From contig JACVZW010000007.1 of assembly GCA_014654775.1 (NCBI GenBank), positions 248,001 to 312,000 of the forward strand: a DNA stretch of 64,000 nt. Direction: 5' to 3'. Shown here one piece after another: positions 16,957-33,431 of the stretch; position 1 is the first letter of the stretch; each line of letters starts with the position of its first letter. The position numbers and the translations under genes were made by a program. The notes under the pieces were generated by a model that was not told the origin of the DNA, did no database searches, and worked only from the letters and a program-made list of their open reading frames with translations. This stretch comes from Paracoccaceae bacterium (lineage in GTDB: Bacteria > Pseudomonadota > Alphaproteobacteria > Rhodobacterales > Rhodobacteraceae).

Positions 16957-17487
16957 ATGCAAGTGGTGAACCCGGCCACGCTCACCGCCCCGGCGATGAC
17001 GGACCTTCGCCACCCCGACCCGTCGCTGTACCGCGACGTGATGGGGGCCTTCCCCACCGGCGTGACCGTGATGACCCTCACCACCGCCGATGGCACCCGC
17101 ATCGGCGTCACCGCCTCGTCCTTCAACACCGTCTCGCTCGACCCGCCCCTGATCCTGTGGAGCCTTGCGCTCAAGGCCCCCAGCCTGCACGCCTTCCGCA
17201 GCACCGACCATTTCGCCGTCAACATCCTCGCCGAGGAACAGCGCCAGATCGCGCTGCAATTCGCACGGCCCTCAGATGACAAGTTCACGGGCATCGCCAC
17301 AGAAACCGGCCTCACCGGCGCACCGCTCCTGACGGGTGCTCTGGCCCATGTCGAATGCCGCACCGTGGCCCGCCATCCCGGCGGCGACCATGAAATCATC
17401 GTCGCCGAGGTCCTCACCCTGCGCCGGCGCGATGGCGCGCCCCTCGTCTTCCAGCGCGGCGCCTTCCACGGCCTGACCCCGGGTTAA
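16957..17487 (+). CDS. Flavin reductase family protein (FMN-binding split barrel)
   Basis: A 176-residue protein starting at the ATG at 16957 with ACAGGAG upstream; the frame is open further upstream, but that part is promoter. It shows the signature F-P-T-G-V-T-V-M-T, then G-V-T-A-S-S-F-N-T-V-S-L-D-P-P-L, and H-F-A-V-N-I-L-A-E-x-Q. These proteins reduce FMN/FAD with NAD(P)H for two-component monooxygenases. The natural partner candidate is the LLM enzyme at 14713-15816. Its stop codon overlaps the stop of the convergent deacetylase gene. Confidence 0.9.
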   Translation: MQVVNPATLTAPAMTDLRHPDPSLYRDVMGAFPTGVTVMTLTTADGTRIGVTASSFNTVSLDPPLILWSLALKAPSLHAFRSTDHFAVNILAEEQRQIALQFARPSDDKFTGIATETGLTGAPLLTGALAHVECRTVARHPGGDHEIIVAEVLTLRRRDGAPLVFQRGAFHGLTPG

Positions 17488-18362: not shown

Positions 18363-18395
18363 GGGGCAGTCCATCCGTGACGTCAGGAAAGGTGG

Positions 18396-18428: not shown

Positions 18429-19496
18429 TCAGTCGATCTTGTATTCGACAGGCCACGTGTAACCGGCCGCGCTCACCGCCGCGATATAGGCCTTAAGGAC
18501 CTGCGACGCGGGCATGTCGCGCCCGTCGCCATCCGCCGCCATCCGCGCCGGGAAGCCCGCCATCGTCTCGGCCCAGGCCTGCCGCGCTTCGGGCGACAGT
18601 TCTACGATATTGGCCCCCGCCTCCTTCAGCCCGGTCAGGCCGCGCTCCTGCGCCGCGTTCAGGTTCGCACCCGCCGCCGCCTCATATTGCGCACCCACCT
18701 CGCGGATGATCGCCTGCACATCCTCGGGCAGCCGCGACAGGGTGGCCGCGTTCATCGTCAGCGCATTCACCCCCATCGCACCAAAGCCGATCAAGGTGAA
18801 GTTCGGCGCAGGCTCATGGAACTTGAACCCCAGATAGCCCGAGGGGAACATGATCCAGCCCGAATAGACCCCGGTCTGCAGCGACATATAGCCGTCGGGC
18901 AGCGCCGATTGCACCGGCACCGTCCCCGCCGTCTCCAGCCATGGCAAGTTCGGCCCCGCGCCCGCGATCTTGACGCCTTTCAGATCTTCCAGCGTGGACC
19001 ACGGCTCCACCGTGCCGAGATGATAGTTGTCCCAGCCATGCAGCCCCAGCAGCACCTGCCCGTAATCCTTTTCGAAGGACTCGGTCAGCCACGGCACCTC
19101 GTTATAGACCTGCCGCACGGTCTGCATCGCCTGCACGGAATCCTGCGGCCCGAAGGGCGCGTAATAGGGGAAGTTGTGCAGGTACAGCTTGGAGGTCTCG
19201 AAGCACATGCAGAACCCGCCGATGTCCAGCAGCCCGCTCTGCACCGCCTCGAAGGTATCGGCCACCCCGGCGATGGCCCCGCCATAGCCTTCCACGAATT
19301 CGATCTCGTGCTCCGTCTCTTCGGCCACCCGGCGCTTCACCTCGGGCACGAAGAAATTGGCCATGTCGTTGACATAGACCGTGGGCCCGTTCGGGTGCCC
19401 TGCCCCGATCCGCAGCGTGAAGGTCTCCGCCGCCACCGGCGCGGCAAGCGAAAGCGCCGCCACACCCATGAAAATCCCCGCAAAACGCGCAGTCAT
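18429..19496 (-). CDS. TRAP transporter substrate-binding protein (DctP family)
   Basis: A 355-residue periplasmic protein with signal peptide M-T-A-R-F-A-G-I-F-M-G-V-A-A-L-S-L-A-A-P-V-A-A-E and a GGGAGGAG ribosome-binding site. The DctP fold is indicated by T-L-R-I-G-A-G-H-P-N-G-P-T-V-Y near the N-terminus, the E-D-L-K-G-V-K-I-A-G-A-G segment and a Y-x-G-W-I-M-F-P-S-G-Y segment. It is divergent from the two TRAP permease genes that start at 19741, an arrangement where one intergenic region controls the whole transporter. Two TTTATCG-type motifs lie in that gap. The ligand is unknown, but context suggests an organic acid or aromatic compound. Confidence 0.92.
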   Translation of the reverse strand: MTARFAGIFMGVAALSLAAPVAAETFTLRIGAGHPNGPTVYVNDMANFFVPEVKRRVAEETEHEIEFVEGYGGAIAGVADTFEAVQSGLLDIGGFCMCFETSKLYLHNFPYYAPFGPQDSVQAMQTVRQVYNEVPWLTESFEKDYGQVLLGLHGWDNYHLGTVEPWSTLEDLKGVKIAGAGPNLPWLETAGTVPVQSALPDGYMSLQTGVYSGWIMFPSGYLGFKFHEPAPNFTLIGFGAMGVNALTMNAATLSRLPEDVQAIIREVGAQYEAAAGANLNAAQERGLTGLKEAGANIVELSPEARQAWAETMAGFPARMAADGDGRDMPASQVLKAYIAAVSAAGYTWPVEYKID

Positions 19497-19569
19497 CACG
19501 TACTCCTCCCTGTTCTGAACAAGCGGAAACGTCAGGGGCCTCCCCGCCCCATCACAGCCGCACCGCTTA

Positions 19570-19585
19570 TTTATCGCTCGCTAAA
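19570..19585. promoter_or_regulatory. Putative TetR operator, site A
   Basis: TTTATCG-CT-CGCTAAA is a 16-base partial palindrome (one mismatch between arms) in the divergent TRAP promoter gap. It belongs to a set of five related sites confined to the 19-31 kb block. Confidence 0.6.
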
Positions 19586-19649
19586 CGACTGCATTCCCCC
19601 ACAGAATCGCTATCCGGTCAAGACCGACGATCGCCCTCCGGCAATCTTA

Positions 19650-19665
19650 TTTATCGAACGCTAAT
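19650..19665. promoter_or_regulatory. Putative TetR operator, site B
   Basis: TTTATCG-AA-CGCTAAT, 80 bases from site A in the same orientation and within the same identical TTATTTATCG context. It lies 75 bases before the TRAP small-permease start. Two copies in one divergent promoter suit independent control of both directions. Confidence 0.6.
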
Positions 19666-19740
19666 TTGCTCTTGACCCATCCTGATCTTGGATTAGCGTC
19701 CAACGCCAAAGCGCTTTGCGGCAGGGTCGGGGAGGGATCC

Positions 19741-20274
19741 ATGAACGCGAACATCACCCTCGCACGGGGGCTTCACATCCTGTCCTGCTTCTGGATCCTC
19801 GCGCTGGCCTTCACGGTCTGCGCCGATGCGCTGGGGCGCGGACTCTTCAACGCGCCCGTGCCCGGCACCAAGGAAATCCTGCAGAATTCGGTGGTTGCCA
19901 TCACCTTTCTGCAATTGCCGCTGGCCATCTACTCCGGCTCCATGCTGCGCACGCCCATTCTCGTCGGCCTCTTGCCGCCCGTCCTGCGCCGCCTGATGCG
20001 CGTGCTCGCCGCCCTGCTCGGCGCGGCTCTCTTCGCCGCCCTCGTCGCGGCCAGCTGGCCCGAATTCCAGACCGCCTACCGCATCGGCGAATACGAAGGC
20101 GAAGGGGCGCTCCGCGTTCCCACATGGCCCGTGCGCGCGATCATCATCGCGCTCTCTGCCCTCACCGTTCTGGCCTATCTCTGGATGATCGCGCTCGATC
20201 TCGCTGGCCGTCTGCAGAACGAAGAAGAGGCGCCGGGTGCCATCCGCGGCTCCGAACGCGGGGGGAATGCCTGA
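19741..20274 (+). CDS. TRAP transporter small permease (DctQ family)
   Basis: A 177-residue membrane protein with four predicted helices and the DctQ-like pattern C-A-D-A-L-G-R-G-L-F-N-A-P-V-P-G-T-K-E-I near the first loop. The ATG at 19741 is preceded by GGGGAGGGATCC; the open frame upstream is promoter. Its stop overlaps the large-permease start (TGATG). It works with the DctM subunit and the divergent binding protein in sodium- or proton-driven uptake. Confidence 0.9.
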   Translation: MNANITLARGLHILSCFWILALAFTVCADALGRGLFNAPVPGTKEILQNSVVAITFLQLPLAIYSGSMLRTPILVGLLPPVLRRLMRVLAALLGAALFAALVAASWPEFQTAYRIGEYEGEGALRVPTWPVRAIIIALSALTVLAYLWMIALDLAGRLQNEEEAPGAIRGSERGGNA

Positions 20275-21590
20275 TGGGCGGCGATATCGTCCTGTGGATG
20301 CTGGGCCTCCTGATCCTCCTGATCCTCGGCGGCTTCCATATCGCCATCGCGCTGGCGGTCTGTTCCTTCCTCGGCGTCTGGCTGATGATGGGCGATCTCG
20401 ACATCGCGCTCTCCATCCTTGGGCTGACGGCCTATGAGGCAATCCGCAAAGACATCTTCGCCGTCATTCCCCTCTTCGTGCTGATGGGCGACTTCATCTC
20501 GCGCTCCGGCGCGGCGGGTGATCTCTACCGCATCTGCGACCGTGGCCTGCGCCGCCTGCCGGGGCGCCTCGCCATCGCCACCATCGCAGGCAACACCATC
20601 TTCGCCGCCGTCACCGGCGTCTCCATCGCCGCCGCCGCCGCCTTCTCGCGCATCGCCTATCCGGAAATGCGCAAGGCAGGCTACAAGCAGACCTTCTCCC
20701 TCGGCGTCGTTGCCGGATCGGCCTGCCTCGGCATGCTGATCCCGCCTTCCGTCCTCCTCATCGTCTGGGCCATCCTGACGGAGATGAGCGTGGGCGCCCT
20801 CTTCGTCGCGGGCATCGTGCCGGGGCTGCTGCTCGCCGCGCTCTTCGCGCTTTACGTCATCGTCGCGGCCAGCCGGAACCCCGCCATCGCCCCCCGCTTC
20901 GACACCCCCATCGTCCCCGCCACGCAGGCCGAGACGCGGTCCGAACTCGTCGGTGGCTTGGGCATCCTTGCCCTCGTCCTTCTGGTGATCGGCGGCATCT
21001 GGACCGGGGCCTTCACGCCGACTGAGGCCGCCGCCTTCGGCGCGGTCGGTGCCCTTATCATCGGGCTGTTCAAGGGGATGCGCAGCAAGGAATTCATGGA
21101 CTCGCTCTTTCAGGCGGGCCGCACCACCGCGCCGATCATGATCCTTCTGATCACCGCGCAGATGTATTCCCGCCTTCTCGCCATGGGCGGCGGGGTGAAC
21201 TACATCCAAGGCCTCTTCCTTGGCGCCGACCTGTCGCCGATGATGATCCTCCTCCTCATGGCGCTGATCTGGCTGATCCTCGGCATGCTGATCGACTCCG
21301 TCTCGATCATCCTGCTGACCGTGCCGATCTTCGCCCCCCTCGCTATGGGCATGGGGATCGACCCGCTCGCCTTCGCCATCTTCGGCATTCTTGTGATCGA
21401 AGCCGGGCTGCTGACCCCGCCCTTCGGCATCCTTGTCTATACCGTGCGCGGCTCGGTGAACGATCCATCGGCCACGCTGGCCAAGATCTTCACAGGCGCC
21501 ACACCCTACTGCCTCCTGATCCTTGTCGCAGCCTTCCTCGTGCTGCTGATCCCGCAACTCGCCAACTGGCTGCCGCGCGTCATGCTCTGA
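20274..21590 (+). CDS. TRAP transporter large permease (DctM family)
   Basis: A 438-residue polytopic membrane protein with about twelve hydrophobic segments. Family landmarks include F-A-V-I-P-L-F-V-L-M-G-D-F, the G-N-T-I-F-A-A-V-T-G-V-S scoop region, L-G-M-L-I-P-P-S, F-T-P-T-E-A-A-A-F-G-A-V and the late G-L-L-T-P-P-F-G. The length is normal for DctM. It is translationally coupled to the small permease and followed 31 bases later by the dehydrogenase gene, giving a dctQM-dehydrogenase-SDR operon. Confidence 0.93.
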   Translation: MGGDIVLWMLGLLILLILGGFHIAIALAVCSFLGVWLMMGDLDIALSILGLTAYEAIRKDIFAVIPLFVLMGDFISRSGAAGDLYRICDRGLRRLPGRLAIATIAGNTIFAAVTGVSIAAAAAFSRIAYPEMRKAGYKQTFSLGVVAGSACLGMLIPPSVLLIVWAILTEMSVGALFVAGIVPGLLLAALFALYVIVAASRNPAIAPRFDTPIVPATQAETRSELVGGLGILALVLLVIGGIWTGAFTPTEAAAFGAVGALIIGLFKGMRSKEFMDSLFQAGRTTAPIMILLITAQMYSRLLAMGGGVNYIQGLFLGADLSPMMILLLMALIWLILGMLIDSVSIILLTVPIFAPLAMGMGIDPLAFAIFGILVIEAGLLTPPFGILVYTVRGSVNDPSATLAKIFTGATPYCLLILVAAFLVLLIPQLANWLPRVML

Positions 21591-21621
21591 CCCGACGCTC
21601 TACTGACCAAGGGGAAACCCC

Positions 21622-22932
21622 ATGACCATCACCTATCTCAAGCGTGGCAAGCCCGCCGACCAACGCGCCGAGGATGACGCCGCTGTCCGCGCCACCGTCG
21701 AAACCGTGCTGGCGGATATCGAGGCGCGCGGCGACGCCGCCATCCGCGACCTGTCCGTGAAGTTCGACCGTTACGATCCCCCCGCCTTCCGCCTGACGCC
21801 CTCGGAAATCGAGGCCGCGATGCAAAAGGTCGCCCCCCGCGACATGGAGGATATCCGCTTCGCCCAAACCCAGATCCGCAGCTTCGCACAGGCCCAGCGC
21901 GCAGCCCTGCAGGATATCGAGGTGGAAACCCTCCCCGGTGTGATCCTCGGCCATCGCAACATCCCCGTGCAATCGGTGGGCTGCTATGTGCCGGGGGGCA
22001 AATTCCCCATGGTCGCCAGTGCCCATATGTCCGTCCTCACCGCCGCCGTGGCGAGCGTGCCGCGCATCATCGCCTCCGCCCCGCCCGTGAAGGGCGAACC
22101 CCATCCCGCCATCGTCGCCGCCATGCATATGGGCGGCGCGCATGAAATCTACGTCCTCGGCGGCATGCAGGCCGTCGGCGCTATGGCGATCGGCACCGAA
22201 ACCATCAAGGCCGTCGACATGCTGGTCGGTCCCGGCAACGCCTATGTGGCCGAAGCCAAGCGCCAGCTTTTCGGTCGCGTCGGCATCGACCTTTTCGCAG
22301 GCCCGACCGAAACCATGGTCATCGCCGATGACACCGTGGATGCCGAACTTTGCGCCACCGACCTCCTCGGTCAGGCCGAACACGGCTACAACTCGCCTGC
22401 CGTTCTGATCACCAATTCCCGCAAGCTCGCCCTTGCGACGATGGCCGAAATCGACCGCCTGCTGACCATCCTGCCCACCGCCGAAACCGCCGCCGTCAGT
22501 TGGCGCGACTACGGCGAGGTGGTGCTCTGCGACACCTACGAAGAAATGCTGTCCGAGGCCAATTTCATCGCCTCCGAACATGTGCAGGTGATGACCGACC
22601 GCGACGACTGGTTTCTGGCACACATGCACAGCTACGGCGCGCTCTTCCTTGGGCCCCGGACCAATGTGGCCAATGGCGACAAGGTTATCGGCACCAACCA
22701 CACGCTGCCCACCCGCAAGGCGGGCCGCTATACAGGCGGTCTCTGGGTCGGCAAGTTCCTCAAGACCCACAGCTATCAGCGCGTCACCACGGACGAGGCG
22801 GCGGCGATGATCGGCGCCTACGGCTCGCGCCTGTGCATGCTCGAAGGCTTCGTCGGCCATGCCGAACAATGCAACATCCGCGTCCGCCGCTATGGCGGGC
22901 AGAACGTCCCCTATGGCGCGGCGGCGGAATGA
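21622..22932 (+). CDS. Histidinol dehydrogenase-family enzyme, HpsN (sulfopropanediol 3-dehydrogenase)-like
   Basis: A 436-residue NAD-dependent zinc enzyme. It contains [42 protein letters not shown], the zinc-site segment G-Q-A-E-H-G, and [11 protein letters not shown]. The [10 protein letters not shown] run and the transporter/SDR neighbours resemble the catabolic HpsN branch more than the biosynthetic HisD found in histidine operons. HpsN oxidises a primary alcohol to the acid in C3-sulfonate breakdown; other catabolic homologues act on unknown alcohols. No sulfonate-specific lyase is visible nearby, so the substrate stays open. Confidence 0.87.
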
Positions 22933-23693
22933 CCCTTCCCCGCACCCCATCCTTCCGCCTTGACGGCCGCCGCGCGCTGGTCACCGGGGCCTCCTCCGGC
23001 ATCGGCCTCGCCGCCGCCGCCGCGCTGGCCGAGGCGGGCGCAACGGTCCACCTCGTCTCCCGCCGCACCGCCGAACTGGAAACCCTCCGCGACGCCCTCC
23101 GCGCCAGCGGCGCAGAGGCCCATGCGACCGCACTCGACATCACCGACCTTGCCGCCACCGCCGCGATGGTTGCGGCCCACGGCCCCTTCGACATCCTCGT
23201 GAATTCCGCAGGTCTCGCCCGCCATTCCCCGGCGCTGGACACCACGCCCGAGGATTACGACGCCGCCATGTCCCTCAACCTCCGCGCAGCCTATTTCCTG
23301 ACGCGCGAGGTGGCGCGCGGCCTGATCGCCGCCGGAAAAACCGGCAGCCTGATCAACATCAGCAGCCAGATGGGCCATGTCGGCGGCCCCGACCGCGCCG
23401 TCTACTGCGCGAACAAGCACGCGCTGGAAGGGATGACCAAGGCGATGGCGCTGGAATGGGCGCCCCACGGCATCCGCGTCAACACGCTCTGCCCCACCTT
23501 CATCCGCACGCCCTTGGCCGAACAAACGCTCAATAACCCCGAACGCAAAGCGTGGATCCTGTCCAAGATCAAGCTCGGCCGATTGGGAGAGGTCGAGGAT
23601 CTCATGGGTCCCATCACTTTCCTCGCCTCCGACGCCGCCGCCCTGATCACCGGCACCCATCTCATCGTCGATGGCGGCTGGACGGCGGAATAA
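22929..23693 (+). CDS. SDR family oxidoreductase
   Basis: A 254-residue short-chain dehydrogenase/reductase. The cofactor motif is T-G-A-S-S-G-I-G (residues 19-26), then N-S-A-G (92-95) and the catalytic Ser near 145 with Tyr159-x-x-x-Lys163. Arg-rich residues after beta-2 (S-R-R) hint at NADP use. It overlaps the HpsN-like gene by four bases (ATGA), so the two dehydrogenases probably act in consecutive steps. It is last in the TRAP operon, convergent with the molybdenum hydroxylase gene 22 bases away. Confidence 0.92.
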
Positions 23694-23715
23694 ACCACCG
23701 CAGCCAAGGCGCCGA

Positions 23716-26100
23716 TCAATCCGCCACCACCCCCAGCGCCCGCAGCACCCGCTCCGGCGTGATGGGCATCTGCCAGACGCTCGCCCCCAAGGGCGCCAGC
23801 GCATCATTCACCGCGTTCAGAATCGCCCCCGGCGCGCCGCCCGTCCCGGCCTCTCCTGCCCCCTTCGCGCCAAGGATCGACGTCTTGGTCGGCGTCTCCA
23901 CATGCGCCACCACGATATCCGGCATCTCCGCCGCCATTGGCACCAGATAATCCGCCATCGTCGTGTTCAGCAGTTGCCCCTGATCATCGTAAAGGCATTC
24001 CTCATACAGCGCGCCACCGATCCCCTGCACCACCCCGCCGCGCACCTGTTCATCCACCAGCATCGGGTTGATCACCCGCCCGCAATCCTCCACCGCCCAG
24101 AAACCCAGCACCTTGGTAAAGCCCGTATCGGTATCCACCTCCACATAGGCCCCCATCGCCCCGTTGGTGAAGACAAAGGGCATATCCGACACCCGGTAAT
24201 GCCGCGTGGCCACCAATTCCGGCTTCAGGTCGGCGGGCAACTCATTGCCCCGATAATACACGGTGCGCGCCAGATCGGCCAAACCCATCCGCTCCGCCCC
24301 CGTGGCCTCATCCACGATCTTGCCCGCGCGGATATCAAGGCTCTCCACCCCCGCCTGCAGCATGACGCCCGCCACCTCCAGCACCTGCTCCTTCAGCGCA
24401 TGCGCCGCCAGCAGCATCGCCTCGCCGCCGATCCCCGCCCCGCGGGATGCCCAAGTGCCCCCGCCATAGGGCACCGTCGCCGTGTCGCCCGTGGTCACCT
24501 TCACCCGCCCGATATCGACGCCGAACACCCCCGCCGCGATCTGGGCAAGGATGGCATTCGTCCCCTGCCCCTGCTCCGTCACCGAAGACGAGATATGCAA
24601 GGCCCCGCCCGCATCCAGCCGCACCGTCGCCCCGTCCTGACTGGCAATCGGCGCGCCGCCGATGCCGTAGAACATGGGCGAAGGGTTCGTCACCTCCACC
24701 ATCGACAGGATGCCGATGCCACGATGCACCCCCCGCGCTCGCGCCGCCGCCTGATCGGCGCGCAGGGCCTCGTACCCCATCACCTCCACCAGCTTGGCCA
24801 GCGTCTTCTGATGCGACAGGTCATCCAACTTCATACCGCTCGCCGATGTCGTGGGATAGGCGTCATCCGCGATCAGGTTCCGCTGCCGGATCACAACCGG
24901 GTCCATGCCCAGCGCACGGCCCGCCTCGTCCAGCAGCCCATCCGCCACCGCCATGGCGATCGGATGGCCCACCGCGCGGTACTGGCACATCATGTTCTTG
25001 TTCTGGAACACCACCCGCCCCCGCGCGCGATAGGCCTCCATCCGATAGGGCGCGCCCGTCAGGTTCAGCACCTGATTGCATTCGATGGCCGAGGTGCGGG
25101 GATACATCGAAAACGGCCCGATCCCGGTCAGATCGTCGATCTCCAGCCCCGCGATGCGGCCATCCGCATGCACGCCGATCCGCCCCGTCACCACGTGGTC
25201 CCGGGCATGGATATCGGTCATGAAGCTTTCCATCCGGTCCGCCACGAACTTCACCGGACGGCGCAGCAGCCGCGCCGCCGCGCCCACCGCGATCTCATCG
25301 CCATAGGTGTGAATCTTGATCCCGAAACTGCCGCCCACGTCGTTTGAGATGACGCGGATATTCTCTTCCGGCAGCCCCAGATGCCGCGACAACACGACCT
25401 GCATCATATGCGGGGCCTGCCCCGAATAATGCATGGTCAGACGGTCCTCCGCCGGATCGTAGTCCATCACTGTCGCGCGGGGTTCCAGCGTCACACCCGT
25501 GTGGCGGCCAAAGCGGAAGGTCCGCTCCACCACCGTCACGCCCGGCTGGGCCATGGCCGCCGCCATGTCCCCCGTCTCCACCCGCCGCTCCCAAGCAAGG
25601 TTCGACCCGAACTCCGGATGGATCACCGGCGCGTCGGGCGACAGCGCCTCCTCCATCCGCACGGCGGCAGGCAGGGGGTCATAGTCCGCCTCGATCCGCT
25701 CCACCGCATCCTCGGCCTCGGCGCGGGTCGCCGCCACCACCATCGCCACAGGCTCCCCCTGCCAGCGCACCACATCCACCGCCAGCGCAGGCTGCGGCGG
25801 CGACCGCAGCCCCGCCAGATGGGTCAGCACGCCCACCCATGGCGTCACATGCGCCGCCATCTCGGCCCCGGTCCAGACCGCCGCCACCCCCGGCATCGCC
25901 CGCGCCGCCGCGACGTCCAGCGAAACGATCCGCGCATGCGCATGTGGGCTGCGCAGAAAGGCCGCATGCACCATCCGCGGCAGTTGGATGTCATCGACAA
26001 ACCGCCCCCGGCCCTGCAGCAGCCGCGCCGCATCGGCGCGCGGCTCCGCCGTCCCGATATAGCGGTTGGGACGGTCGAAGATCGTCGCAGGCCCCGTCAT
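23716..26100 (-). CDS. Xanthine dehydrogenase-family molybdopterin-binding large subunit
   Basis: A 794-residue protein of normal length for CoxL/XdhB-like subunits. Elements in order: Y-I-G-T-A-E-P-R-x-D-A near the N-terminus, N-D-V-G-G-S-F-G-I-K at about 265, the active-site loop C-Q-Y-R-A-V-G-H-P at 372-380, and the catalytic glutamate in G-A-K-G-A-G-E-A-G (Glu750). The loop at 372-380 differs from the AYRCSFR of form I CO dehydrogenase and the AYRGAGR common in form II, so another substrate is likely. It hydroxylates a C-H next to a heteroatom or aldehyde, with electrons passing to the Fe-S and FAD subunits. It is the last of three coupled genes. Confidence 0.92.
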   Translation of the reverse strand: MTGPATIFDRPNRYIGTAEPRADAARLLQGRGRFVDDIQLPRMVHAAFLRSPHAHARIVSLDVAAARAMPGVAAVWTGAEMAAHVTPWVGVLTHLAGLRSPPQPALAVDVVRWQGEPVAMVVAATRAEAEDAVERIEADYDPLPAAVRMEEALSPDAPVIHPEFGSNLAWERRVETGDMAAAMAQPGVTVVERTFRFGRHTGVTLEPRATVMDYDPAEDRLTMHYSGQAPHMMQVVLSRHLGLPEENIRVISNDVGGSFGIKIHTYGDEIAVGAAARLLRRPVKFVADRMESFMTDIHARDHVVTGRIGVHADGRIAGLEIDDLTGIGPFSMYPRTSAIECNQVLNLTGAPYRMEAYRARGRVVFQNKNMMCQYRAVGHPIAMAVADGLLDEAGRALGMDPVVIRQRNLIADDAYPTTSASGMKLDDLSHQKTLAKLVEVMGYEALRADQAAARARGVHRGIGILSMVEVTNPSPMFYGIGGAPIASQDGATVRLDAGGALHISSSVTEQGQGTNAILAQIAAGVFGVDIGRVKVTTGDTATVPYGGGTWASRGAGIGGEAMLLAAHALKEQVLEVAGVMLQAGVESLDIRAGKIVDEATGAERMGLADLARTVYYRGNELPADLKPELVATRHYRVSDMPFVFTNGAMGAYVEVDTDTGFTKVLGFWAVEDCGRVINPMLVDEQVRGGVVQGIGGALYEECLYDDQGQLLNTTMADYLVPMAAEMPDIVVAHVETPTKTSILGAKGAGEAGTGGAPGAILNAVNDALAPLGASVWQMPITPERVLRALGVVAD

Positions 26101-26573
26101 TTCGCCGCCCCCCCGATCACGTCGCAGACCGCATCCACCACGGCCTGATAGCCCGTGCAGCGACAGTAATTCCCCGACAGATGCGCCCGGATCGCCGCAC
26201 GATCCGGCCCCCCGCCGCCGTCGATGTATTCAAGGGCCGAGGCGATCATCCCCGGCGTGCAGAACCCGCATTGCAGGGCGTTGCGCGCCGTGAAGGCCGC
26301 CGCCAGCGCCGCCGACCGCCCGCTCTCGGCCAGCCCCTCCACCGTCACCACCTCGGCACCCTCCGCCTGCACCGCCAGCATCAGGCAGCCGCGCACCGTC
26401 ACCCCGTCCACAAGGATCGTGCAGGCCCCGCAGACCCCATGCTCACATCCCGCATGGCTGCCCGTCAGCCCCAGATCATTGCGCAGGAAATCCAGCAGGT
26501 TCCGCCGCACGGGCACCTCCGCCCGCACCTCTTCGCCATTCACCCGGCAGGTCAGCCGCGCCATCCCCGTCAT
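26097..26573 (-). CDS. (2Fe-2S)-binding small subunit of molybdenum hydroxylase
   Basis: A 158-residue protein with both [2Fe-2S] motifs. The plant-ferredoxin-type cluster uses Cys43, Cys48, Cys51 and Cys63 (C-E-H-G-V-C-G-A-C); the C-terminal cluster uses Cys102, Cys105, Cys137 and Cys139 (Q-C-G-F-C-T-P-G-M, Y-C-R-C-T-G-Y). It transfers electrons from the molybdenum site to FAD. The start chosen at 26573 overlaps the FAD-subunit stop (ATGA), and its own stop overlaps the large-subunit start the same way. Confidence 0.95.
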   Translation of the reverse strand: MTGMARLTCRVNGEEVRAEVPVRRNLLDFLRNDLGLTGSHAGCEHGVCGACTILVDGVTVRGCLMLAVQAEGAEVVTVEGLAESGRSAALAAAFTARNALQCGFCTPGMIASALEYIDGGGGPDRAAIRAHLSGNYCRCTGYQAVVDAVCDVIGGAAK

Positions 26574-27421
26574 GCCACGCCCTCCGCCCATGCCCGCCGC
26601 AGGGCCACCCCCGCCAGATGCCGCCGCATCGGGGCCGAGGCATGGATGTCCCCCGCGAAATCGATCTCCGCCAGCGCCGCCACCGCCCGGTCCAGGGCCG
26701 TGCCATCGCCCAGCACCGCGCCGCGCAAGGCCGCCTCCGCACCCGTCGCGCGCAGCGCCCGATCCGCCACGCCGAACAGCGCGATCCGCGCCTCCATCAC
26801 CCGCGCACCCTCCACCGCCACGGCCAGCGCGGCGCCCGCCAAGGCGAAATCCCCATGCCGCCGCCCAATCTCATGGAACCCGTGGCGCAAGCCGCGCGCC
26901 TTAGGCACCTCAAGCGCGACGATCAACTCATCCGCCGCCCGCGCCGTCTCGTAATGGCCAAGGAAGAAATCCCCGGCCGCCACGCGCCGCTCGCCCGCCA
27001 GCGACCGCAGCACAACTACCCCCGCCAGCGCCAGCAGCACCGCAGGCACCTCCGCCGCCGGATCGGCCAGCGCGACCGACCCGCCGATCGTGCCCCGGTT
27101 GCGGATGGCGGGATGCGCGATCTCGGGCAGCGCGCGCGCCAGAAGCGGCACCTCAGCCGCGATCAAGCCTGACGCCATCAACTCCGACCAGCGCGTCATT
27201 GCCCCGATCACCACCCGCTCGCCCGCGTCATGGATGCCCCGCAACTCCGCCAGCGCGGCCAGATCGACCAGCGTCTCGGGCATCGCCACGCGGAAATTCA
27301 TCATCGGCATCAGGCTCTGCCCCCCGGCCAAGGGCATCGCCGCCCCCTCGCCTGCGGCCAAGGCTTGCAAAGCCTCCTCCATCCGCCCCGGTCGCAGATA
27401 TCCGAACTCCGCCGCCTTCAT
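26570..27421 (-). CDS. FAD-binding medium subunit of molybdenum hydroxylase (CoxM-like)
   Basis: A 283-residue protein starting M-K-A-A-E-F-G-Y-L-R-P after a G-rich ribosome-binding site. The FAD-contacting motif A-G-G-Q-S-L-M-P at about 38-45 and the R-N-R-G-T-I-G-G-S-V segment at about 100-110 identify the family. It is the first gene of the operon. A TTTATCG-type motif lies 55 bases upstream of its start, so the TetR encoded just upstream probably represses it. Confidence 0.93.
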   Translation of the reverse strand: MKAAEFGYLRPGRMEEALQALAAGEGAAMPLAGGQSLMPMMNFRVAMPETLVDLAALAELRGIHDAGERVVIGAMTRWSELMASGLIAAEVPLLARALPEIAHPAIRNRGTIGGSVALADPAAEVPAVLLALAGVVVLRSLAGERRVAAGDFFLGHYETARAADELIVALEVPKARGLRHGFHEIGRRHGDFALAGAALAVAVEGARVMEARIALFGVADRALRATGAEAALRGAVLGDGTALDRAVAALAEIDFAGDIHASAPMRRHLAGVALRRAWAEGVA

Positions 27422-27475
27422 GCGCCCCCCAGCCCGGTGCAAGCGCGACCCTCCCGCCGCGCCGACCCCGCCTTG

Positions 27476-27491
27476 TTTATCGATCTATAAC
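27476..27491. promoter_or_regulatory. Putative TetR operator, site C
   Basis: TTTATCG-AT-CTATAAC, in the 143-base gap between the TetR stop codon (27565) and the molybdenum hydroxylase start (27421). The left half-site is identical to sites A, B and E. Confidence 0.6.
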
Positions 27492-27564
27492 TTAACCGTC
27501 GGACAGCATCTGACAAGCCCGTTTCCATCCCCGAAAACGGCCCCATAGTCGAACTGTCCCGAAA

Positions 27565-28206
27565 TCACCCGCGCTTCAGCGCCAGCCCATGCAGAAAGGC
27601 CGCCACCGCATCCGCGATCACCTGCTGCTTGTCGGCAGAGACGCAGCTTTCATAGATCAGATCGCGCACTCCGTAATAGAAGATGCCCCCGTGCATGACC
27701 CAGGCAAACTCCACCTCGTCATCGCGCGGCACCGCCTCCGGCAGCCCCGCTTCGGCCCGCGCCTCCATGACGATGGGCTCCAGAATGCGCTGCCGTACCA
27801 GCTGCATGTAGCGGCGGTTGATGTCCACGCCCTTCAGCCCGGAAAACAGGTAAATCCGCATCCATTCCCGGTTGAAGATCACTTCCGTATAGGCATTGTA
27901 GAACTCGTTCAGCCGATCCGCCAAGGGCCGCGACCGATCCCCGATCAGCCCCGCCCATTCCGGCCGCCAGCGGTTCACATAGACCGTCTCATAGACCTCG
28001 TGGATCAGGTCTTCCTTGCTGGGGAAATAGCGGTACAGCAGCGGCTGCGTCACGCCCAGCCGCTTGGCCAGCCCGCGCGTCGAACTCTCGAACCCTTCCT
28101 CGGCAAAGAACTCCACCGCCCGCGTGACGAATTCCCGCCGCCGCTCGTCAGACGGCAGCCGCCGCCGTCGCGGCGCCGGCGTCCCCTCCGGCCGTTCATC
28201 CTTCAT
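27565..28206 (-). CDS. TetR/AcrR family transcriptional regulator
   Basis: A 213-residue regulator started at the ATG at 28206 (GGAAGG upstream). The N-terminal helix-turn-helix reads A-V-E-F-F-A-E-E-G-F-E-S-S-T-R-G-L-A-K-R-L-G-V-T-Q-P-L-L-Y-R-Y-F-P-S-K-E-D-L, preceded by a basic arm (R-R-R-R-L-P-S-D-E-R-R-R-E). The C-terminal part is an all-helical ligand-binding and dimer domain. It is divergent from the cyclase gene and upstream of the molybdenum hydroxylase operon, both of which have a TTTATCG-type motif in their promoters, making this protein the best candidate for binding all five sites. Confidence 0.92.
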   Translation of the reverse strand: MKDERPEGTPAPRRRRLPSDERRREFVTRAVEFFAEEGFESSTRGLAKRLGVTQPLLYRYFPSKEDLIHEVYETVYVNRWRPEWAGLIGDRSRPLADRLNEFYNAYTEVIFNREWMRIYLFSGLKGVDINRRYMQLVRQRILEPIVMEARAEAGLPEAVPRDDEVEFAWVMHGGIFYYGVRDLIYESCVSADKQQVIADAVAAFLHGLALKRG

Positions 28207-28304
28207 CGCCAACCCTTCCACAGCGCCCCAAAGCGCGCGCTTGCTCTCCTGATACCAAATTCCGTCGCTCCCGGGCAAGGTCGCGGCAGGTTTCCCCAGC
28301 CCCG

Positions 28305-28340
28305 CCCGCCGTCATGCCCGCCGTCATGCCCGCCGTCATG
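28305..28340. repeat. 12-bp tandem repeat, three perfect copies
   Basis: CCCGCCGTCATG occurs three times in a row between the divergent TetR and cyclase genes. Each copy contains GTCATG. It could vary in copy number between strains and so change promoter spacing. Confidence 0.75.
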
Positions 28341-28364
28341 CCCATTGACGCTATCGCATTTTTA

Positions 28365-28380
28365 TTTTTCAGTCGATAAA
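28365..28380. promoter_or_regulatory. Putative TetR operator, site D
   Basis: TTTTTCA-GT-CGATAAA: the right half is the exact complement of the TTTATCG half-site, the left half is degenerate. It ends 28 bases before the cyclase start (28409) and is the only site with its good half on this side. Confidence 0.5.
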
Positions 28381-28408
28381 TAACGCCAGACAGAAGGGGA
28401 GGATGACC

Positions 28409-29365
28409 ATGCCGAAATACACCCGCGACGACATCTACAAGGCCGCGAAAGAGCTTTCGAACTGGGGCCGCTGGGGGCCGGATGACCAGATCGGCACGCT
28501 CAACAACGTCTCCCCCGAAGACGTCGTCCGCGCCGCGGGCCTGATCCGCAAGGGCAAGACCTTCGCCCTCGGCCTCAACCTCAAGGAAAAGATCCAATCC
28601 GGCCTCTTCGGCGGGCGCTGGAACATGATCCACCAAATGCTCGCCACCGGCACCGATGCAGTGATCGGCGCGCAGGATGGCGACGGCAAGAAGTACCTCC
28701 GCTACGCAGATGACGCGATCAACCTGCCCTGTCAGGGCTCCACCCAATGGGACGCGCTCTGCCACATCTTCCTCGATGACAAGATGTATAATGGCTACCC
28801 GGCCACCGACGTGACCGTCGCAGGCGCCGCCCGTCTTGGCATCGAACATGTCCGCGACAAGATGGTGGGCCGCGGCGTCCTCCTCGACATCGCGCGCTGG
28901 AAAGGGCTGGACAGCCTGCCCGACGGCTATCCCGTCACCAATGCCGATCTGGACGGCTGCGCCGCCGCCCAAGGCGTCGAAATCCGCAAAGGCGATTTCG
29001 TCATCGTCCGCACCGGCCATCAGGAACGCTGCCTCGCCGCCGCCGACTGGACGGGTTACGCGGGCGGCGATGCCCCCGGTCTGGCCTTTGAAACCGCCTA
29101 CTGGATCCGCCAGCACGACATCGCCGCGATCTGCGCCGATACCTGGGGCTGCGAGGTCCGCCCCAACGAATGCGACGAGGCGAACCAGCCCTGGCACTGG
29201 GTCGTCATCCCCGCCATCGGGATCTCCATGGGCGAGATTTTCTACGTCAAGGAACTGGCCGAAGACTGCGCCGCCGACGGGGTCTATGAATTCTTCTTCA
29301 CCGCCCCGCCCCTTCACATCCCCGGCGCTGCAGGCTCCCCCATCAATCCGCAGGCGATCAAATGA
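28409..29365 (+). CDS. Cyclase family protein (kynurenine formamidase/isatin hydrolase-like fold)
   Basis: A 318-residue PF04199-type metal-dependent hydrolase. The start at 28409 is preferred because GGGGAGG is six bases upstream; an ATG at 28403 overlaps that site. The usual H-x-G-T-H-x-D-x-x-x-H metal motif appears as S-T-Q-W-D-A-L-C-H (111-119), a variant found in a longer subgroup of the family, keeping the Asp and final His. Members hydrolyse N-formyl amides or cyclic amides (kynurenine formamidase, isatin hydrolase) or cyclise polyketides. The neighbouring molybdenum hydroxylase and pyridine-type monooxygenase make a ring-opening hydrolase plausible. It overlaps the GST gene by four bases. 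Confidence 0.85.
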   Translation: MPKYTRDDIYKAAKELSNWGRWGPDDQIGTLNNVSPEDVVRAAGLIRKGKTFALGLNLKEKIQSGLFGGRWNMIHQMLATGTDAVIGAQDGDGKKYLRYADDAINLPCQGSTQWDALCHIFLDDKMYNGYPATDVTVAGAARLGIEHVRDKMVGRGVLLDIARWKGLDSLPDGYPVTNADLDGCAAAQGVEIRKGDFVIVRTGHQERCLAAADWTGYAGGDAPGLAFETAYWIRQHDIAAICADTWGCEVRPNECDEANQPWHWVVIPAIGISMGEIFYVKELAEDCAADGVYEFFFTAPPLHIPGAAGSPINPQAIK

Positions 29366-30006
29366 CCCTCATCCTCTGGGGCCGCGCTAGCTCGGCCAAT
29401 GTGCAGAAGGCGCTCTGGGCGCTGGCAGAACTGGGCCTGCCTTACGACCACCGCATCGTCGGCGGCCGCTACGGCGGCACCGATGGGGCGGAATTCGTCG
29501 CCCTCACCCCCACCCGCAAGGTGCCCGTCCTACAGGACGGCCCCCTCGCGATCTGGGACAGCCACGCCATCCTGCGCCATCTGGGCCTCTGGCACGCCCC
29601 CGCGGGCCACGCGCTGCACCTCGCCACGCCCGCCGCGATGGCCGCGTCCGACTCATGGCTCGACTTCACCTCGACCGTGCTGCAACCGCCCTTCATCCGG
29701 CTGTTCTGGCAACTGGTCCGCACCCCCGCCGATCAGCAGAGCGTCCCGGCACAAGAGGCCGCGAAGAAGGACATCGCCGCCGCCCTGACCGAACTCGCCC
29801 GAGGGATCGACGATCAGGGGCGGCTGGCGGGCGCGGATTTCAGCATGGCCGACATCGGCCCCGGCAGCCTGATGTATCGGCTGAACGATCTCGCCCCCGA
29901 CCTGATCGCCGCCGATCCAAAGATCGCCGCTTGGGTCGCGCGGTTGCAGGCGCGCCCGGCATGGCAAGCCCATGTCGCCACCAGCTACGAAGAACTGCGC
30001 GTGTGA
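29362..30006 (+). CDS. Glutathione S-transferase family protein
   Basis: A 214-residue two-domain protein. The thioredoxin-like N-terminal domain has L-W-G-R-A-S-S-A-N-V-Q-K-A-L-W-A-L-A-E-L, K-V-P-V-L-Q-D-G with the cis-Pro that binds glutathione, and W-D-S-H-A-I-L-R-H-L. The C-terminal domain is helical (F-S-M-A-D-I near 150). It is coupled to the cyclase gene. In catabolic operons such proteins can be glutathione-dependent isomerases or detoxify electrophilic intermediates; which applies here is not visible. Confidence 0.9.
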   Translation: MTLILWGRASSANVQKALWALAELGLPYDHRIVGGRYGGTDGAEFVALTPTRKVPVLQDGPLAIWDSHAILRHLGLWHAPAGHALHLATPAAMAASDSWLDFTSTVLQPPFIRLFWQLVRTPADQQSVPAQEAAKKDIAAALTELARGIDDQGRLAGADFSMADIGPGSLMYRLNDLAPDLIAADPKIAAWVARLQARPAWQAHVATSYEELRV

Positions 30007-30018
30007 CCACAGCGCGGC

Positions 30019-30042
30019 GGGGGGGCCGCTTCCGGCCCCCCC
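30019..30042. terminator. GC hairpin between convergent genes
   Basis: A seven-G run plus CC pairs with GG plus a seven-C run around the loop GCTTCC, giving a perfect nine-base stem. It sits between the convergent GST and FAD monooxygenase genes and could block transcription from both sides; no U-run follows. Confidence 0.55.
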
Positions 30043-30051
30043 ACACCCCCC

Positions 30052-31245
30052 CTAAATCACCATCACCGCCGTCTCGCGCATGATCTCGTCCAGATGGCGG
30101 TTGTTCGCTCCATCCGCATTGCCCCCCGGCGGGTCGTCAAATAGATAGGCCCCCAGCCGGCGCGACCGCGCCCATGCCTTCTGCGCCTCTGGCACCCGCT
30201 CGGCCGAATAGGCCGCCAGCGCCGCCGCCACATCCCCCCCGCCCGACAGATGCCGCGCCAAGGCCAGCGCATCGCAGGCGGCCTTCGTCACCCCCATCCC
30301 CACATGGGGCCGGGCCACGCAGGCCGCATCCCCGACCAGCGCCACCCGCCCCTCGGCCATCACGGGCGACACATGATCGTAGATCGGCGTGAAGAAGGGC
30401 CGCTCACCCGCCCGCAGGATGTCCACGAAGGGCCGCGCCAACCGCGCCTCGGCATCGGCTTTCATCGCAGCCACCACATCGTCCCGCACCAGGGGCGGCG
30501 GGATCGACACGGAATGCAGCACGCCCTCCGCATCCGTCAGCATATCGCGCAAGCGTCGCGGCTCCACCGGCACATACCAGACGAAGTTATAGCGCCGATG
30601 CCCCGGCCGCAGATCGTTCCCCGGCCCCGCGATGGGATAGCCGATGAATTCGCCGCCCGTCGGCAGATGAAAGCCGAAATGCGGGAACACCTCCGCCCGG
30701 ATCGCCTCGGGCAGATCGGCCTCATGCGCCAAGGTCCGCCAGACCACATAGCCGGAATAGACAGGTTGCACCTCGGGCAGCATCTGCGCCCGGATCGCAG
30801 ACCGGAACCCGTCCGCCCCCACCAGCACGTCGCCCCGCGCCTCGCCCCCGTCGGCAAAGCGCAACGTCACCCCGTCCGCGTCCTGCGCATAGCCCGCCAC
30901 GGCCCGGCCCAGATGATGCGTCCCCTCCGGCATCAACTGCCGCAGGCTCCGATGGATGCGGTCCCATGACGTCACCACCTGCGGCAGGCGCAACCGCCCG
31001 ACCTCGTTCCCCGCCAGATCCCACGTCACCCGATCCGTCACCGCCACGCCCAGATCGGCCACATCAACCCCCACCGCTTCCAGCACCGAGGTCAGCACGT
31101 CATGCGTGACGATCCCCGCCCCGCGCCCCGAAAGCTCCACCCCCGTCCGCTCGAAAACCTCCACTTGCCAGCCCACGCGCCGCAGGGCCGCCGCCGCGAA
31201 CAGCCCCCCGATCGACCCGCCGCAGACCAGCGCCTTCCCCGTCAT
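30052..31245 (-). CDS. FAD-dependent monooxygenase (2,6-dihydroxypyridine 3-monooxygenase-like)
   Basis: A 397-residue flavoprotein aromatic hydroxylase. The FAD-binding motif is C-G-G-S-I-G-G-L near the N-terminus, D-G-F at about 150 and G-D-A-A-C-V-A-R-P-H at about 300. The internal Y-S-G-Y-V-V-W-R, I-G-Y-P-I-A-G and L-R-D-M-L-T-D-A-E-G segments, and the length, resemble the dihydroxypyridine hydroxylase branch rather than salicylate or 4-hydroxybenzoate hydroxylases; this is judged by eye. It would add OH to a hydroxylated (hetero)aromatic ring using NAD(P)H and O2. It is divergent from the cupin gene, with TetR site E between. Confidence 0.87.
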   Translation of the reverse strand: MTGKALVCGGSIGGLFAAAALRRVGWQVEVFERTGVELSGRGAGIVTHDVLTSVLEAVGVDVADLGVAVTDRVTWDLAGNEVGRLRLPQVVTSWDRIHRSLRQLMPEGTHHLGRAVAGYAQDADGVTLRFADGGEARGDVLVGADGFRSAIRAQMLPEVQPVYSGYVVWRTLAHEADLPEAIRAEVFPHFGFHLPTGGEFIGYPIAGPGNDLRPGHRRYNFVWYVPVEPRRLRDMLTDAEGVLHSVSIPPPLVRDDVVAAMKADAEARLARPFVDILRAGERPFFTPIYDHVSPVMAEGRVALVGDAACVARPHVGMGVTKAACDALALARHLSGGGDVAAALAAYSAERVPEAQKAWARSRRLGAYLFDDPPGGNADGANNRHLDEIMRETAVMVI

Positions 31246-31277
31246 CCCGCCGCTCCCTTTCCTCTGGCCTCCCTCTA

Positions 31278-31293
31278 TTTATCGCACTATAAA
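31278..31293. promoter_or_regulatory. Putative TetR operator, site E
   Basis: TTTATCG-CA-CTATAAA lies in the 77-base gap between the divergent monooxygenase (start 31245) and cupin (start 31323) genes. It is the cleanest copy together with site A; TTTAT/ATAAA arms are inverted. Confidence 0.65.
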
Positions 31294-31322
31294 TAAGAAG
31301 CAATCTCGAACCGGAGGACGCG

Positions 31323-31912: not shown

Positions 31913-33430
31913 TCAGTCCTCTGCCTGCCCCACCTGTGCCAGCACATCCCCCCGTCCCCGCGCCCGCAGGATCATCGGCAGGATCAGCGCCACCGCCGCC
32001 AGCGCCAGCAGCACCGCCGCAATGGGCGACTGCACCAAGGTCATCGGATCCCCCTGCGAAATCGACAGCGCGCGGCGCAACTGCTGCTCCGCCATCGGCC
32101 CAAGGATCAACCCCACCACCACCGGCGCGATGGGATAGCCGTAAAGCCGCATCAGATAGCCCAGCGTCCCGAACAGGACGAGCATGGTCAGTTCCACAGG
32201 CGACGGATTCACCCCCAGCGTGCCCAGCGTCGCAAAGACAAGGATACCGCCGTAAAGCCAGGGCTGCGGGATCTTCAACAGCAGGATCCAGAACCGGATC
32301 AGCGGCAAATTCAGCACCAAAAGCATGACGTTAGCCACCAACAGCGACGCGATCAGCCCCCAGACAAGGTCCGGCGCCGTGACAAACAACAGCGGCCCGG
32401 GCTGCAGCCCGAACTGCTGAAACCCCGCCAGCATGATCGCCGCCGTCGCCGTCGTGGGCAGGCCCAGCGTCAGCAGCGGCACCAGCGTCCCGGCAGCGGC
32501 GGCATTGTTCGCAGCCTCCGGTCCCGCAACCCCCTCGATGGCGCCTTTGCCGAATTCTTCCGGGTGCTTGGTCAGGTTCCGCTCCGTCGCATAGGACAGG
32601 AAGGACGCGATATCCGCCCCCCCGGCAGGCATCGACCCAATGGGAAATCCGATCCCCGTGCCCCGCAGCCACGCCTTCCACGACCGCGACCAATCCTGCG
32701 CCGTCATCTTCACGCGCCCCTTGATCGCCAGCACCGCCCCCTCATTCCCCGGCCCCTGCGCCGCCACGAACAGCGCCTCACCCAGCGCGAACATCGCCAC
32801 CGCCAGCGTCGTCACCTCGATCCCGTCCAGCAGTTGCGGCACCCCGAAGGACAACCGCGTCTGCCCCGTCAACTGGTCGATCCCGACCATCGCCAGCGCC
32901 AAGCCTATGAAAAGAGACACCAATCCCTTCAGCGCGCTTTCCCCGAAGGCGGCCGAAACGGTGACAAAGGCCAGCACCATCAGCGCGAAATACTCCCGCG
33001 GCCCGAAGACGAGCGCGAGTTTCACCACATGCGGCGCAAGGAAAGCCAGCAGCAGCGTCGCGATCAATCCCGCCACGAAAGACCCGATCGCGGCGGTCGC
33101 CAAGGCAGGCCCCCCACGCCCGGATCGGGCCATCTTGTTCCCTTCCAGCGCGGTGATGACCGATGCGCTTTCTCCGGGCGTGTTCAGCAGGATCGACGTC
33201 GTCGATCCTCCATACATCCCGCCGTAATAGATGCCCGCGAACATGATCAGCGACCCTGCCGCGTCCAGCCCATAGGTGACTGGCAGAAGCAGCGCCACCG
33301 TCAGCGCAGGCCCGATCCCCGGCAGCACGCCGACCGCTGTGCCCAGCGTCACCCCGATCAGCGCATAAAGCAGCATCATCGGTTCGAACGCCGTCGCAAG
33401 CCCCTGCATCAGAAAGGAAAACGTATCCAT
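31913..33430 (-). CDS. tctA: Tripartite tricarboxylate transporter large permease (TctA family)
   Basis: A 505-residue polytopic membrane protein. It has the TctA landmarks [17 protein letters not shown] near the N-terminus, [19 protein letters not shown] and the second, pseudo-symmetric [13 protein letters not shown] motif in the middle. The length is standard. It works with TctB and the periplasmic TctC in proton- or sodium-coupled carboxylate uptake. It is the last gene of the operon, one base after the tctB-like stop, with a strong terminator behind. Confidence 0.94.
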
Positions 33431-33431
33431 C

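What the first reader, a model, noticed from the sequence alone, without database searches (positions are those of the whole stretch)
19570..31293. Five copies of one palindromic motif define a candidate TetR regulon
TTTATCG-NN-CKMTAAA-like sites occur at 19570-19585, 19650-19665, 27476-27491, 28365-28380 (one half only) and 31278-31293. All are intergenic: the divergent TRAP promoter (two), before the molybdenum hydroxylase operon, before the cyclase gene, and between the FAD monooxygenase and cupin. I did not notice other copies in the window. A TetR gene (27565-28206) sits centrally. Seen: the repeats and positions. Inferred: the protein that binds them.
Basis: partly seen in the sequence, partly recalled or inferred. 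Interest (0 to 1): 0.75.

Follow-up and report, generated by a model that had tools for sequence, protein, structure and literature searches.

The report
TetR regulon for N-ring compound breakdown
Five copies of one short mirror-image DNA sequence are very probably the docking sites of a single repressor that controls a bacterium's uptake and breakdown genes for what looks like a nitrogen-ring compound; this is a normal kind of switch, but newly mapped and with a clear record of how its DNA target evolved.

Summary
A 22-bp matrix (TTATTTATCGNNCGATAAATAA) trained only on other genera ranks the five window sites 1-5 (28.6-34.7 bits; next 3.7). In the 4.52-Mb genome a held-out model reports these five and nothing else at E<=1. 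Of 18 genomes with a close TetR, 18 have sites; of 20 without it, 1, marginally. In 25 genomes the site precedes the cyclase (23/23), the first molybdenum-hydroxylase gene (22/22) and both TRAP units (21/21, 20/20), never the inner hydroxylase genes (0/23, 0/23). It follows these genes where they lie some 360 kb from tetR. The TetR recognition helix predicts the operator: QPLxYRYF with TTTATCR, QSLxFNYF with TTGATCR, SHAVIYRHF with GTGACCA, SQRLLYRFF with GTCGTCA. Most likely: a ligand-responsive TetR repressor of an N-heterocycle (pyridine-type) uptake and degradation regulon. Substrate, ligand and direct binding are untested. New member of a known kind.

The parts
19567..19588 (.). Operator 1, TRAP_P side of the divergent TRAP promoter (core 19570-19585)
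   Evidence: 28.6 bits with held-out matrix; genome-wide match. A pair of sites 66-96 bp apart recurs in many relatives' TRAP promoters (31 bp in L056; a single site at the cutoff in L049, L067, L071, L074)
19647..19668 (.). Operator 2, TRAP_Q side of the divergent TRAP promoter (core 19650-19665)
   Evidence: 29.2 bits
27473..27494 (.). Operator 3, upstream of the molybdenum-hydroxylase operon (core 27476-27491)
   Evidence: 32.3 bits; site before the orthologous gene in 22 of 22 genomes
28362..28383 (.). Operator 4, 22 bp before the cyclase-family gene, in the divergent tetR/cyclase region (core 28365-28380)
   Evidence: 34.7 bits, best in window; before the orthologous gene in 23 of 23 genomes; begins 13-15 bp after a TTGAC-type -35-like element in 13 of 15 aligned relatives and in the window
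31275..31296 (.). Operator 5, shared by the divergent FAD monooxygenase and cupin genes (core 31278-31293)
   Evidence: 32.4 bits; site before FAD monooxygenase in 17 of 21 and before cupin in 15 of 21 genomes
27565..28206 (-). TetR-family regulator, 213 aa, predicted binder of the operators; recognition helix about residues 54-60 (QPLLYRY)
   Evidence: TetR_N 9.7e-14; AlphaFold2 model pLDDT 88.7 with HTH helices; helix/operator covariation
18429..19499 (-). TRAP transporter solute-binding protein (DctP)
   Evidence: PF03480 2.2e-20
19741..20274 (+). TRAP small permease (DctQ)
   Evidence: PF04290 5.7e-23
20271..21590 (+). TRAP large permease (DctM)
   Evidence: PF06808 3.1e-81
21622..22932 (+). 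HisD-fold dehydrogenase, closest solved relatives are (R)-DHPS / sulfopropanediol dehydrogenases
22929..23690 (+). short-chain dehydrogenase downstream of it
23716..26100 (-). molybdenum hydroxylase large subunit, closest solved relative quinoline 2-oxidoreductase
26097..26591 (-). molybdenum hydroxylase [2Fe-2S] subunit
26570..27421 (-). molybdenum hydroxylase FAD subunit, first gene of the operon (ORF listed to 27442)
   Evidence: start read
28403..29365 (+). cyclase-family (PF04199) hydrolase
   Evidence: PDB 5ibz (uncharacterised) 1.9e-72
29362..30006 (+). glutathione S-transferase-like, downstream of the cyclase gene
30052..31245 (-). FAD monooxygenase, closest solved relative 2,6-dihydroxypyridine hydroxylase (2vou)
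   Evidence: 1.6e-49
   Evidence: no family; orthologues lie next to the site in relatives

Best explanation
The five sites are operators of the TetR protein encoded at 27565-28206. As a dimer it binds a 7-2-7 palindrome (22 bp with flanks, TTATTTATCGNNCGATAAATAA) placed in or next to the promoters of six transcription units: the two divergent TRAP units, the molybdenum hydroxylase operon, the cyclase-GST operon, and the divergent FAD monooxygenase and cupin genes, which share one site. It represses them until a small molecule, probably the substrate or an early intermediate, releases it. The unit then imports (TRAP) and oxidises (Mo-hydroxylase, a 2,6-dihydroxypyridine-hydroxylase-like flavoenzyme, hydrolases) an N-heterocyclic, probably pyridine-type, compound. 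Shown by computation: the sites, their conservation, their genome-wide confinement to this regulon, co-occurrence with this TetR, and helix/operator covariation. Inferred: direct binding, repression rather than activation, the inducer, and the substrate class.
For: Held-out matrix ranks the five sites 1-5 in the window, 25 bits above the sixth. Genome-wide only these five are reported at E<=1 in 4.52 Mb; 18 of 18 TetR-positive genomes match against 1 of 20 negatives. Six positives contributed nothing to the model (G000, G104, G481, G538, G513, G601) and all six match. Orthologous promoters (site of at least 15 bits within 300 bp upstream, of the genomes where the gene start lies in the fetched DNA): cyclase 23/23, MoM 22/22, TRAP_P 21/21, TRAP_Q 20/20, FAD monooxygenase 17/21, cupin 15/21; inner or other genes MoL 0/23, MoS 0/23, TRAP_M 0/19, GST 0/13, LLM 0/15, PcaD-like 0/12, flavin reductase 0/12. 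In G065 TetR and cyclase lie at 117-119 kb while Mo-hydroxylase, TRAP, FAD monooxygenase and cupin lie at about 477-502 kb of the same contig, each with the site; likewise TRAP on another contig in G357 and FAD monooxygenase/cupin on another contig in G284. Helix class predicts operator type in held-out loci: A 8/11, B 2/2, C 0/1, D 7/8. In two genomes with a second TetR of another class (G084, G168) all 9 and all 11 model-A rows lie on the class-A contig. Operators lie on or beside promoter-like elements in most aligned relatives.
Against: No binding, expression or ligand data. G165/L058 has a class-A helix (56% identity) but no site within its 20-kb locus. In the held-out set L136/L148 (the same gene picked twice) and L160 also lack class-A sites, and the one class-C locus lacks a class-C site. 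FAD monooxygenase and cupin lack a site in 4/21 and 6/21 genomes; tetR has one within 300 bp upstream in only 4/25, so autoregulation is uncertain. Five of 129 sites have no matched cluster gene beside them, two of them strong (L074:11434, 31.0 bits; L075:10759, 28.1 bits). TetR-negative G055 has two marginal matches with one identical 22-mer. Classes A and B are close: with 2 mismatches allowed, A loci often also match the B pattern (9/31 and 5/11). Helix classes change three times on the tree (operator types eight times, noise included), so the covariation rests on few events, and the independent-pairs test has no power. The strict consensus promoter scan found no promoter at the operators. 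The bare 16-mer pattern is not specific genome-wide.
Confidence: 0.9

Rival explanations
1. The sites are operators of another regulator (for example the LysR gene at 15918-16859 or an unlinked factor), and tetR is a neighbour by chance.
For: A LysR gene is near the cluster in the window, and a LysR relative (36-46% identity) lies in the fetched DNA of 10 of 25 genomes.
Against: The other 15 of 25 genomes show no such LysR in the fetched stretches, which are partial. The palindrome changes with the TetR recognition helix more than with overall identity: most loci at 41-52% identity that keep QPLxYRYF keep TTTATC, while 43-48% loci with QSLxF[NKR]YF have TTGATC-type sites. The motif is not reported in 19 of 20 genomes without this TetR.
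Confidence: 0.04
2. TetR binds these sites but acts mainly as an activator, or in a dual way, rather than as a simple repressor.
For: In 11 of 16 aligned class-A MoM promoters the operator directly follows a CTTGAT or CTTGCC element, within the would-be spacer, which could also suit remodelling; the window promoter differs. Some TetR-family members activate (recalled).
Against: Positions over the spacer/-10 region of the cyclase promoter and short distances to start codons (medians 28 bp for cyclase, 36 bp for FAD monooxygenase) fit steric blocking; most TetR-family members are repressors (recalled).
Confidence: 0.1
3. The repeats are chance AT-rich palindromes or a dispersed repeat family.
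For: The genome does hold unrelated dispersed palindromes such as GAAGATTTTTCGTACGAAAAATCTTC, and the bare 16-mer pattern is hardly above its control genome-wide (43 against 32).
Against: Five of five model matches fall in one 12-kb stretch; sites stand before orthologous genes in up to 23 of 23 genomes.
Confidence: 0.01

Closest known systems
TetR/AcrR family local catabolic repressors (AcuR, RutR, BetI type; roles recalled)
   Same: N-terminal HTH, helical ligand domain, palindromic sites, gene beside its targets
   Different: Not a member of the NCBIfam TetR equivalogs that it hits: FasR 36.3 of 330, AcuR 23.8 of 247, BetI 20.6 of 201.3, RutR 19.2 of 368 bits. A Mo-hydroxylase/TRAP regulon
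Pyridine-pathway nicotine catabolism of Paenarthrobacter (Kdh Mo-hydroxylase and 2,6-dihydroxypyridine hydroxylase; gene roles recalled, Kdh also in the abstract start of PMC8305194)
   Same: A Mo-hydroxylase (7dqx, 6-hydroxypseudooxynicotine dehydrogenase, 5.3e-97) with a DHPH-like flavoenzyme (2vou 1.6e-49)
   Different: TRAP uptake, cyclase-family and PuuE-like hydrolases; the Mo-hydroxylase is nearer to quinoline 2-oxidoreductase (8.3e-147). Substrate unknown
Comparative-genomic regulons and TF/motif co-evolution studies (LacI family PMC4052901, IclR family PMC8222616; seen in search listing and abstract starts only)
   Same: Same kind of inference: sites before orthologous genes, and motif/TF co-evolution
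   Different: TetR family; this regulon was not recognised in the titles and abstract starts listed
Homarine catabolism with Mgd (Nat Microbiol 2026, cited in PMC13390433; passages of the citing paper only, the paper itself is not held)
   Same: N-heterocycle catabolism in environmental bacteria; a lead only
   Different: Could not be compared gene by gene

Membership tests
TetR family of regulators | N-terminal TetR_N HTH | tested here: met
   PF00440 51.3 bits against cutoff 24
TetR family of regulators | All-helical fold with HTH plus ligand-binding domain | tested here: met
TetR family of regulators | Binds a palindromic operator near its targets | tested here: inconclusive
   Strong computational evidence; no binding assay
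TetR family of regulators | Ligand-induced release | not testable with these tools
   Needs biochemistry
AcuR / RutR / BetI / FasR equivalogs | NCBIfam curated cutoff reached | tested here: not met
   All far under cutoff
Regulon (comparative-genomic sense) | Conserved sites before orthologous genes in many genomes, rare elsewhere | tested here: met
2,6-dihydroxypyridine 3-hydroxylase | Sequence relation to the solved enzyme | tested here: met
   2vou_A 1.6e-49, 172 bits, residues 2-356
2,6-dihydroxypyridine 3-hydroxylase | Activity on 2,6-dihydroxypyridine | not testable with these tools
   Needs enzyme assay

The most novel reading that the evidence does not exclude
This TetR belongs to an alphaproteobacterial subfamily of regulators, most of them beside Mo-hydroxylase/TRAP clusters, in which the recognition helix was rewritten about three times, each time with a matching rewrite of the operators (half-sites TTTATCR to TTGATCR, GTGACCA or GTCGTCA, same 7-2-7 spacing). 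This keeps paralogous regulons separate in one cell: a natural, readable DNA-recognition code within one TetR subfamily.
Probability: 0.65. Interest if true: 0.55.

Novelty: new member of a known kind. Interest (0 to 1): 0.42.

Why it matters
It gives an unnamed TetR regulator a predicted operator and target list, and it ties together a molybdenum hydroxylase, a DHPH-like flavoenzyme, hydrolases and a TRAP importer as one pathway, which narrows the search for its probable N-heterocyclic substrate. The four helix/operator pairs form a small natural data set for testing how TetR repressors change DNA specificity without crosstalk.

Tried and rejected
Chance palindromes or a dispersed repeat: rejected. 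Another regulator as binder: disfavoured by helix/operator covariation. Wrong gene models that I first used: the ORFs 14818-15912(+), 15909-17279(+) and 22911-23807(-) are antisense shadows; the real genes there are a luciferase-like monooxygenase (14713-15816 -), a LysR regulator (15918-16859 -) and an SDR (22929-23690 +). The labels fredx14818, g15909 and X22911 should be read so. The ORF 19716-21590, labelled TRAP_QM and taken for a fused permease, is DctM with an out-of-frame extension: DctQ is 19741-20274 and DctM 20271-21590. The gene-by-gene counts were therefore redone (TRAP_Q 20/20, TRAP_M 0/19; the other counts are as apart from LysR and HIBDH). The PDB search with 14818-15912(+) found nothing for the shadow reason. 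Homarine pathway comparison: the primary paper is not held. Seven answered paper searches listed no paper that I recognised as describing this regulon, judged by titles and abstract starts; one search listed 15 of 341 and one search listed 12 of 14, and only open-licence PMC papers are covered. Independent-pairs test of helix against operator on a C-terminal-domain tree: one pair on supported branches, no power. In one search the class-D pattern was re-centred (GTCGTC) after the test set had been seen, so only one search is a held-out test. One search uses 25 genomes, many of whose sites trained the matrix; loci that contributed none (L110-L113, L194-L199) show the same placement. One search scored at most 150 first-look candidates a genome, also in the negatives (up to 1544 candidates), and its 20 negatives were taken from the non-matching genomes listed, not at random.
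Full report
OBSERVATION. The five palindromic sites exist at the stated positions and are intergenic. To remove circularity I built a symmetric 22-bp matrix from 67 distinct sites next to orthologous genes in other genera, leaving out the window and the same-genus locus. It ranks the five window sites first to fifth (28.6-34.7 bits); the next place scores 3.7. A sequence-only model (R1, 53 sites, none from the window or its genus) searched against the whole genome gives ten rows at E<=1, namely these five sites on two strands and nothing else in 4,519,349 bases, with 150 of 231 first-look candidates scored. The bare 16-mer is weaker evidence: with up to 3 mismatches it has 43 forward matches genome-wide against 32 for the reversed control, and the best non-window place that was fetched reaches 20.3 bits on the matrix.

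SURROUNDINGS. Just outside the given coordinates lie a luciferase-like monooxygenase (LLM), flavin reductase, PuuE-like and PcaD-like hydrolases and a LysR gene. Relatives of these recur beside the regulon but carry almost no operators of their own (LLM 0/15, PcaD-like 0/12, flavin reductase 0/12, PuuE-like 1/18); some may be read from an upstream operator as part of an operon.

CONSERVATION. TetR relatives at E<=1e-30 were found in 44 of 394 family genomes, 35 of 390 order genomes and 19 of 385 class genomes; these sets overlap. In 25 genomes with class-A TetRs, counting only genes whose start lies in the fetched DNA, the site stands before the cyclase gene in 23/23, the first Mo-hydroxylase gene in 22/22, TRAP_P in 21/21, TRAP_Q in 20/20, FAD monooxygenase 17/21 and cupin 15/21, and never before the second and third Mo-hydroxylase genes (0/23, 0/23) or TRAP_M (0/19). 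Of 129 sites of at least 15 bits in 567 kb, 124 are within 350 bp upstream of a cluster gene and none is inside a matched gene. One genome (G165, L058) has the TetR but no site in its 20-kb locus.

TETR AND SITE GO TOGETHER. Of 38 genomes scanned with R1, all 18 with a close TetR matched, including six that gave no site to the model (G000, G104, G481, G538, G513, G601). Of 20 with no TetR found at E<=1e-30, 19 had no match and G055 had two marginal ones with one identical 22-mer. Where the cluster is broken up, the site follows the targets: in G065 tetR and cyclase are near 117-119 kb, while Mo-hydroxylase, TRAP, FAD monooxygenase and cupin, each with a site, are near 477-502 kb of the same contig; in G357 the TRAP genes and in G284 the FAD monooxygenase/cupin pair lie on other contigs, again with sites.

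THE BINDER. The AlphaFold2 model (pLDDT 88.7) has a TetR fold; its third helix (model residues 53-59, i.e. 54-60 of the protein) holds QPLLYRY. Among relatives this helix falls into classes, and a search for palindromes around each tetR gene, made without a fixed motif, gave a different operator for each class at the same 7-2-7 spacing: A QPL[LI]YRYF with TTTATCR; B QSL[LI]F[NKR]YF with TTGATCR; C SHAVIYRHF with GTGACCA; D SQRLLYRFF with GTCGTCA. In the loci used to define this, the expected operator was present in A 30/31, B 17/17, C 4/5 and D 2/2, with 3 loci of other helices. In held-out loci it was A 8/11, B 2/2, C 0/1 and D 7/8, with 13 further loci of other helices not classed. Patterns A and B overlap at 2 mismatches: 9/31 and 5/11 class-A loci also match B. 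With a single best operator for each of 93 rows: A 35/42, B 18/19, C 4/6, D 10/10, 16 rows unclassed (two of the class-A rows are one gene picked twice). At similar overall identity (41-52%) the operator mostly follows the helix. On a C-terminal-domain tree the helix class changes three times and the operator type eight times, so this is a handful of events, not dozens. In two genomes that hold two TetR classes (G084: A and B; G168: A and a D-like form) all 9 and all 11 rows of the class-A scan lie on the class-A contig.

MECHANISM. Operators lie 22 bp (cyclase), 54 bp (MoM), 32 and 29 bp (FAD monooxygenase and cupin) and 70 and 75 bp (TRAP_P and TRAP_Q) before the start codons (counted). In 13 of 15 aligned relatives and in the window the cyclase operator begins 13-15 bp after a TTGAC-type -35-like element, and in 11 of 16 aligned class-A MoM promoters the operator directly follows CTTGAT or CTTGCC, though not in the window. 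This suggests blocking of RNA polymerase; the strict consensus promoter scan did not detect these promoters. Repression with release by a pathway compound is therefore the likeliest scheme (inferred). The enzyme set points to an N-heterocycle, probably a pyridine derivative (inferred). The homarine pathway is a lead only, as its paper is not held.

VERDICT. It is a new member of a known kind. The part that goes beyond the finding is the helix/operator series within one subfamily.

Noticed in passing
28241-28256 (window) against L046:11299-11314: The same-genus relative has an extra operator (GTTATCGATTGATAAC) 37 bp from the tetR start; in the window the matching stretch, aligned by eye, keeps only half (CTGATACC before AAAT), so a tetR-proximal site may have decayed here. 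Two sites in the tetR/cyclase gap are seen in 10 of 21 loci.
   Followed up: partly
L007-L009, L011, L012, L015 (other contigs of the same genome): A dispersed palindrome around TTTTTCGNNCGAAAAA (e.g. GAAGATTTTTCGTACGAAAAATCTTC), some with further GAAAATTTTTCG pieces nearby; the six places looked at appear to lie between genes, but this was not tested. Possibly a REP-like element or terminator family.
   Followed up: partly
L109 and L164 (G586; L075 is Loktanella fryxellensis and its contig has the same length): A second Mo-hydroxylase/TRAP cluster with a double class-B operator (TTGATCG..CGATCAA) sits about 8 kb from a class-A tetR, but only one TetR match was reported in that genome at E<=1e-30.
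   Followed up: partly
13928-18374: Luciferase-like monooxygenase, LysR, flavin reductase, PcaD-like and PuuE-like hydrolase genes; relatives of them recur near the regulon in many genomes, nearly always without operators before them: probably more of the same pathway, perhaps with a second regulator.
   Followed up: partly
21622-23690: The HpsN-like dehydrogenase and SDR pair follows the TRAP permease in the window and L046; in L059, L060 and L072 such a pair lies elsewhere near the cluster, and L204 (another family) has both near a class-A TetR, with two cyclase genes.
   Followed up: no
31913-36039: A TctABC-type transporter and another solute-binding protein gene follow the regulon in the window and in same-genus L046; they were not found in the other loci.
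   Followed up: no
L201 and L202 (G055): Two identical 22-mers close to the operator in a genome without this TetR; not explained.
   Followed up: no
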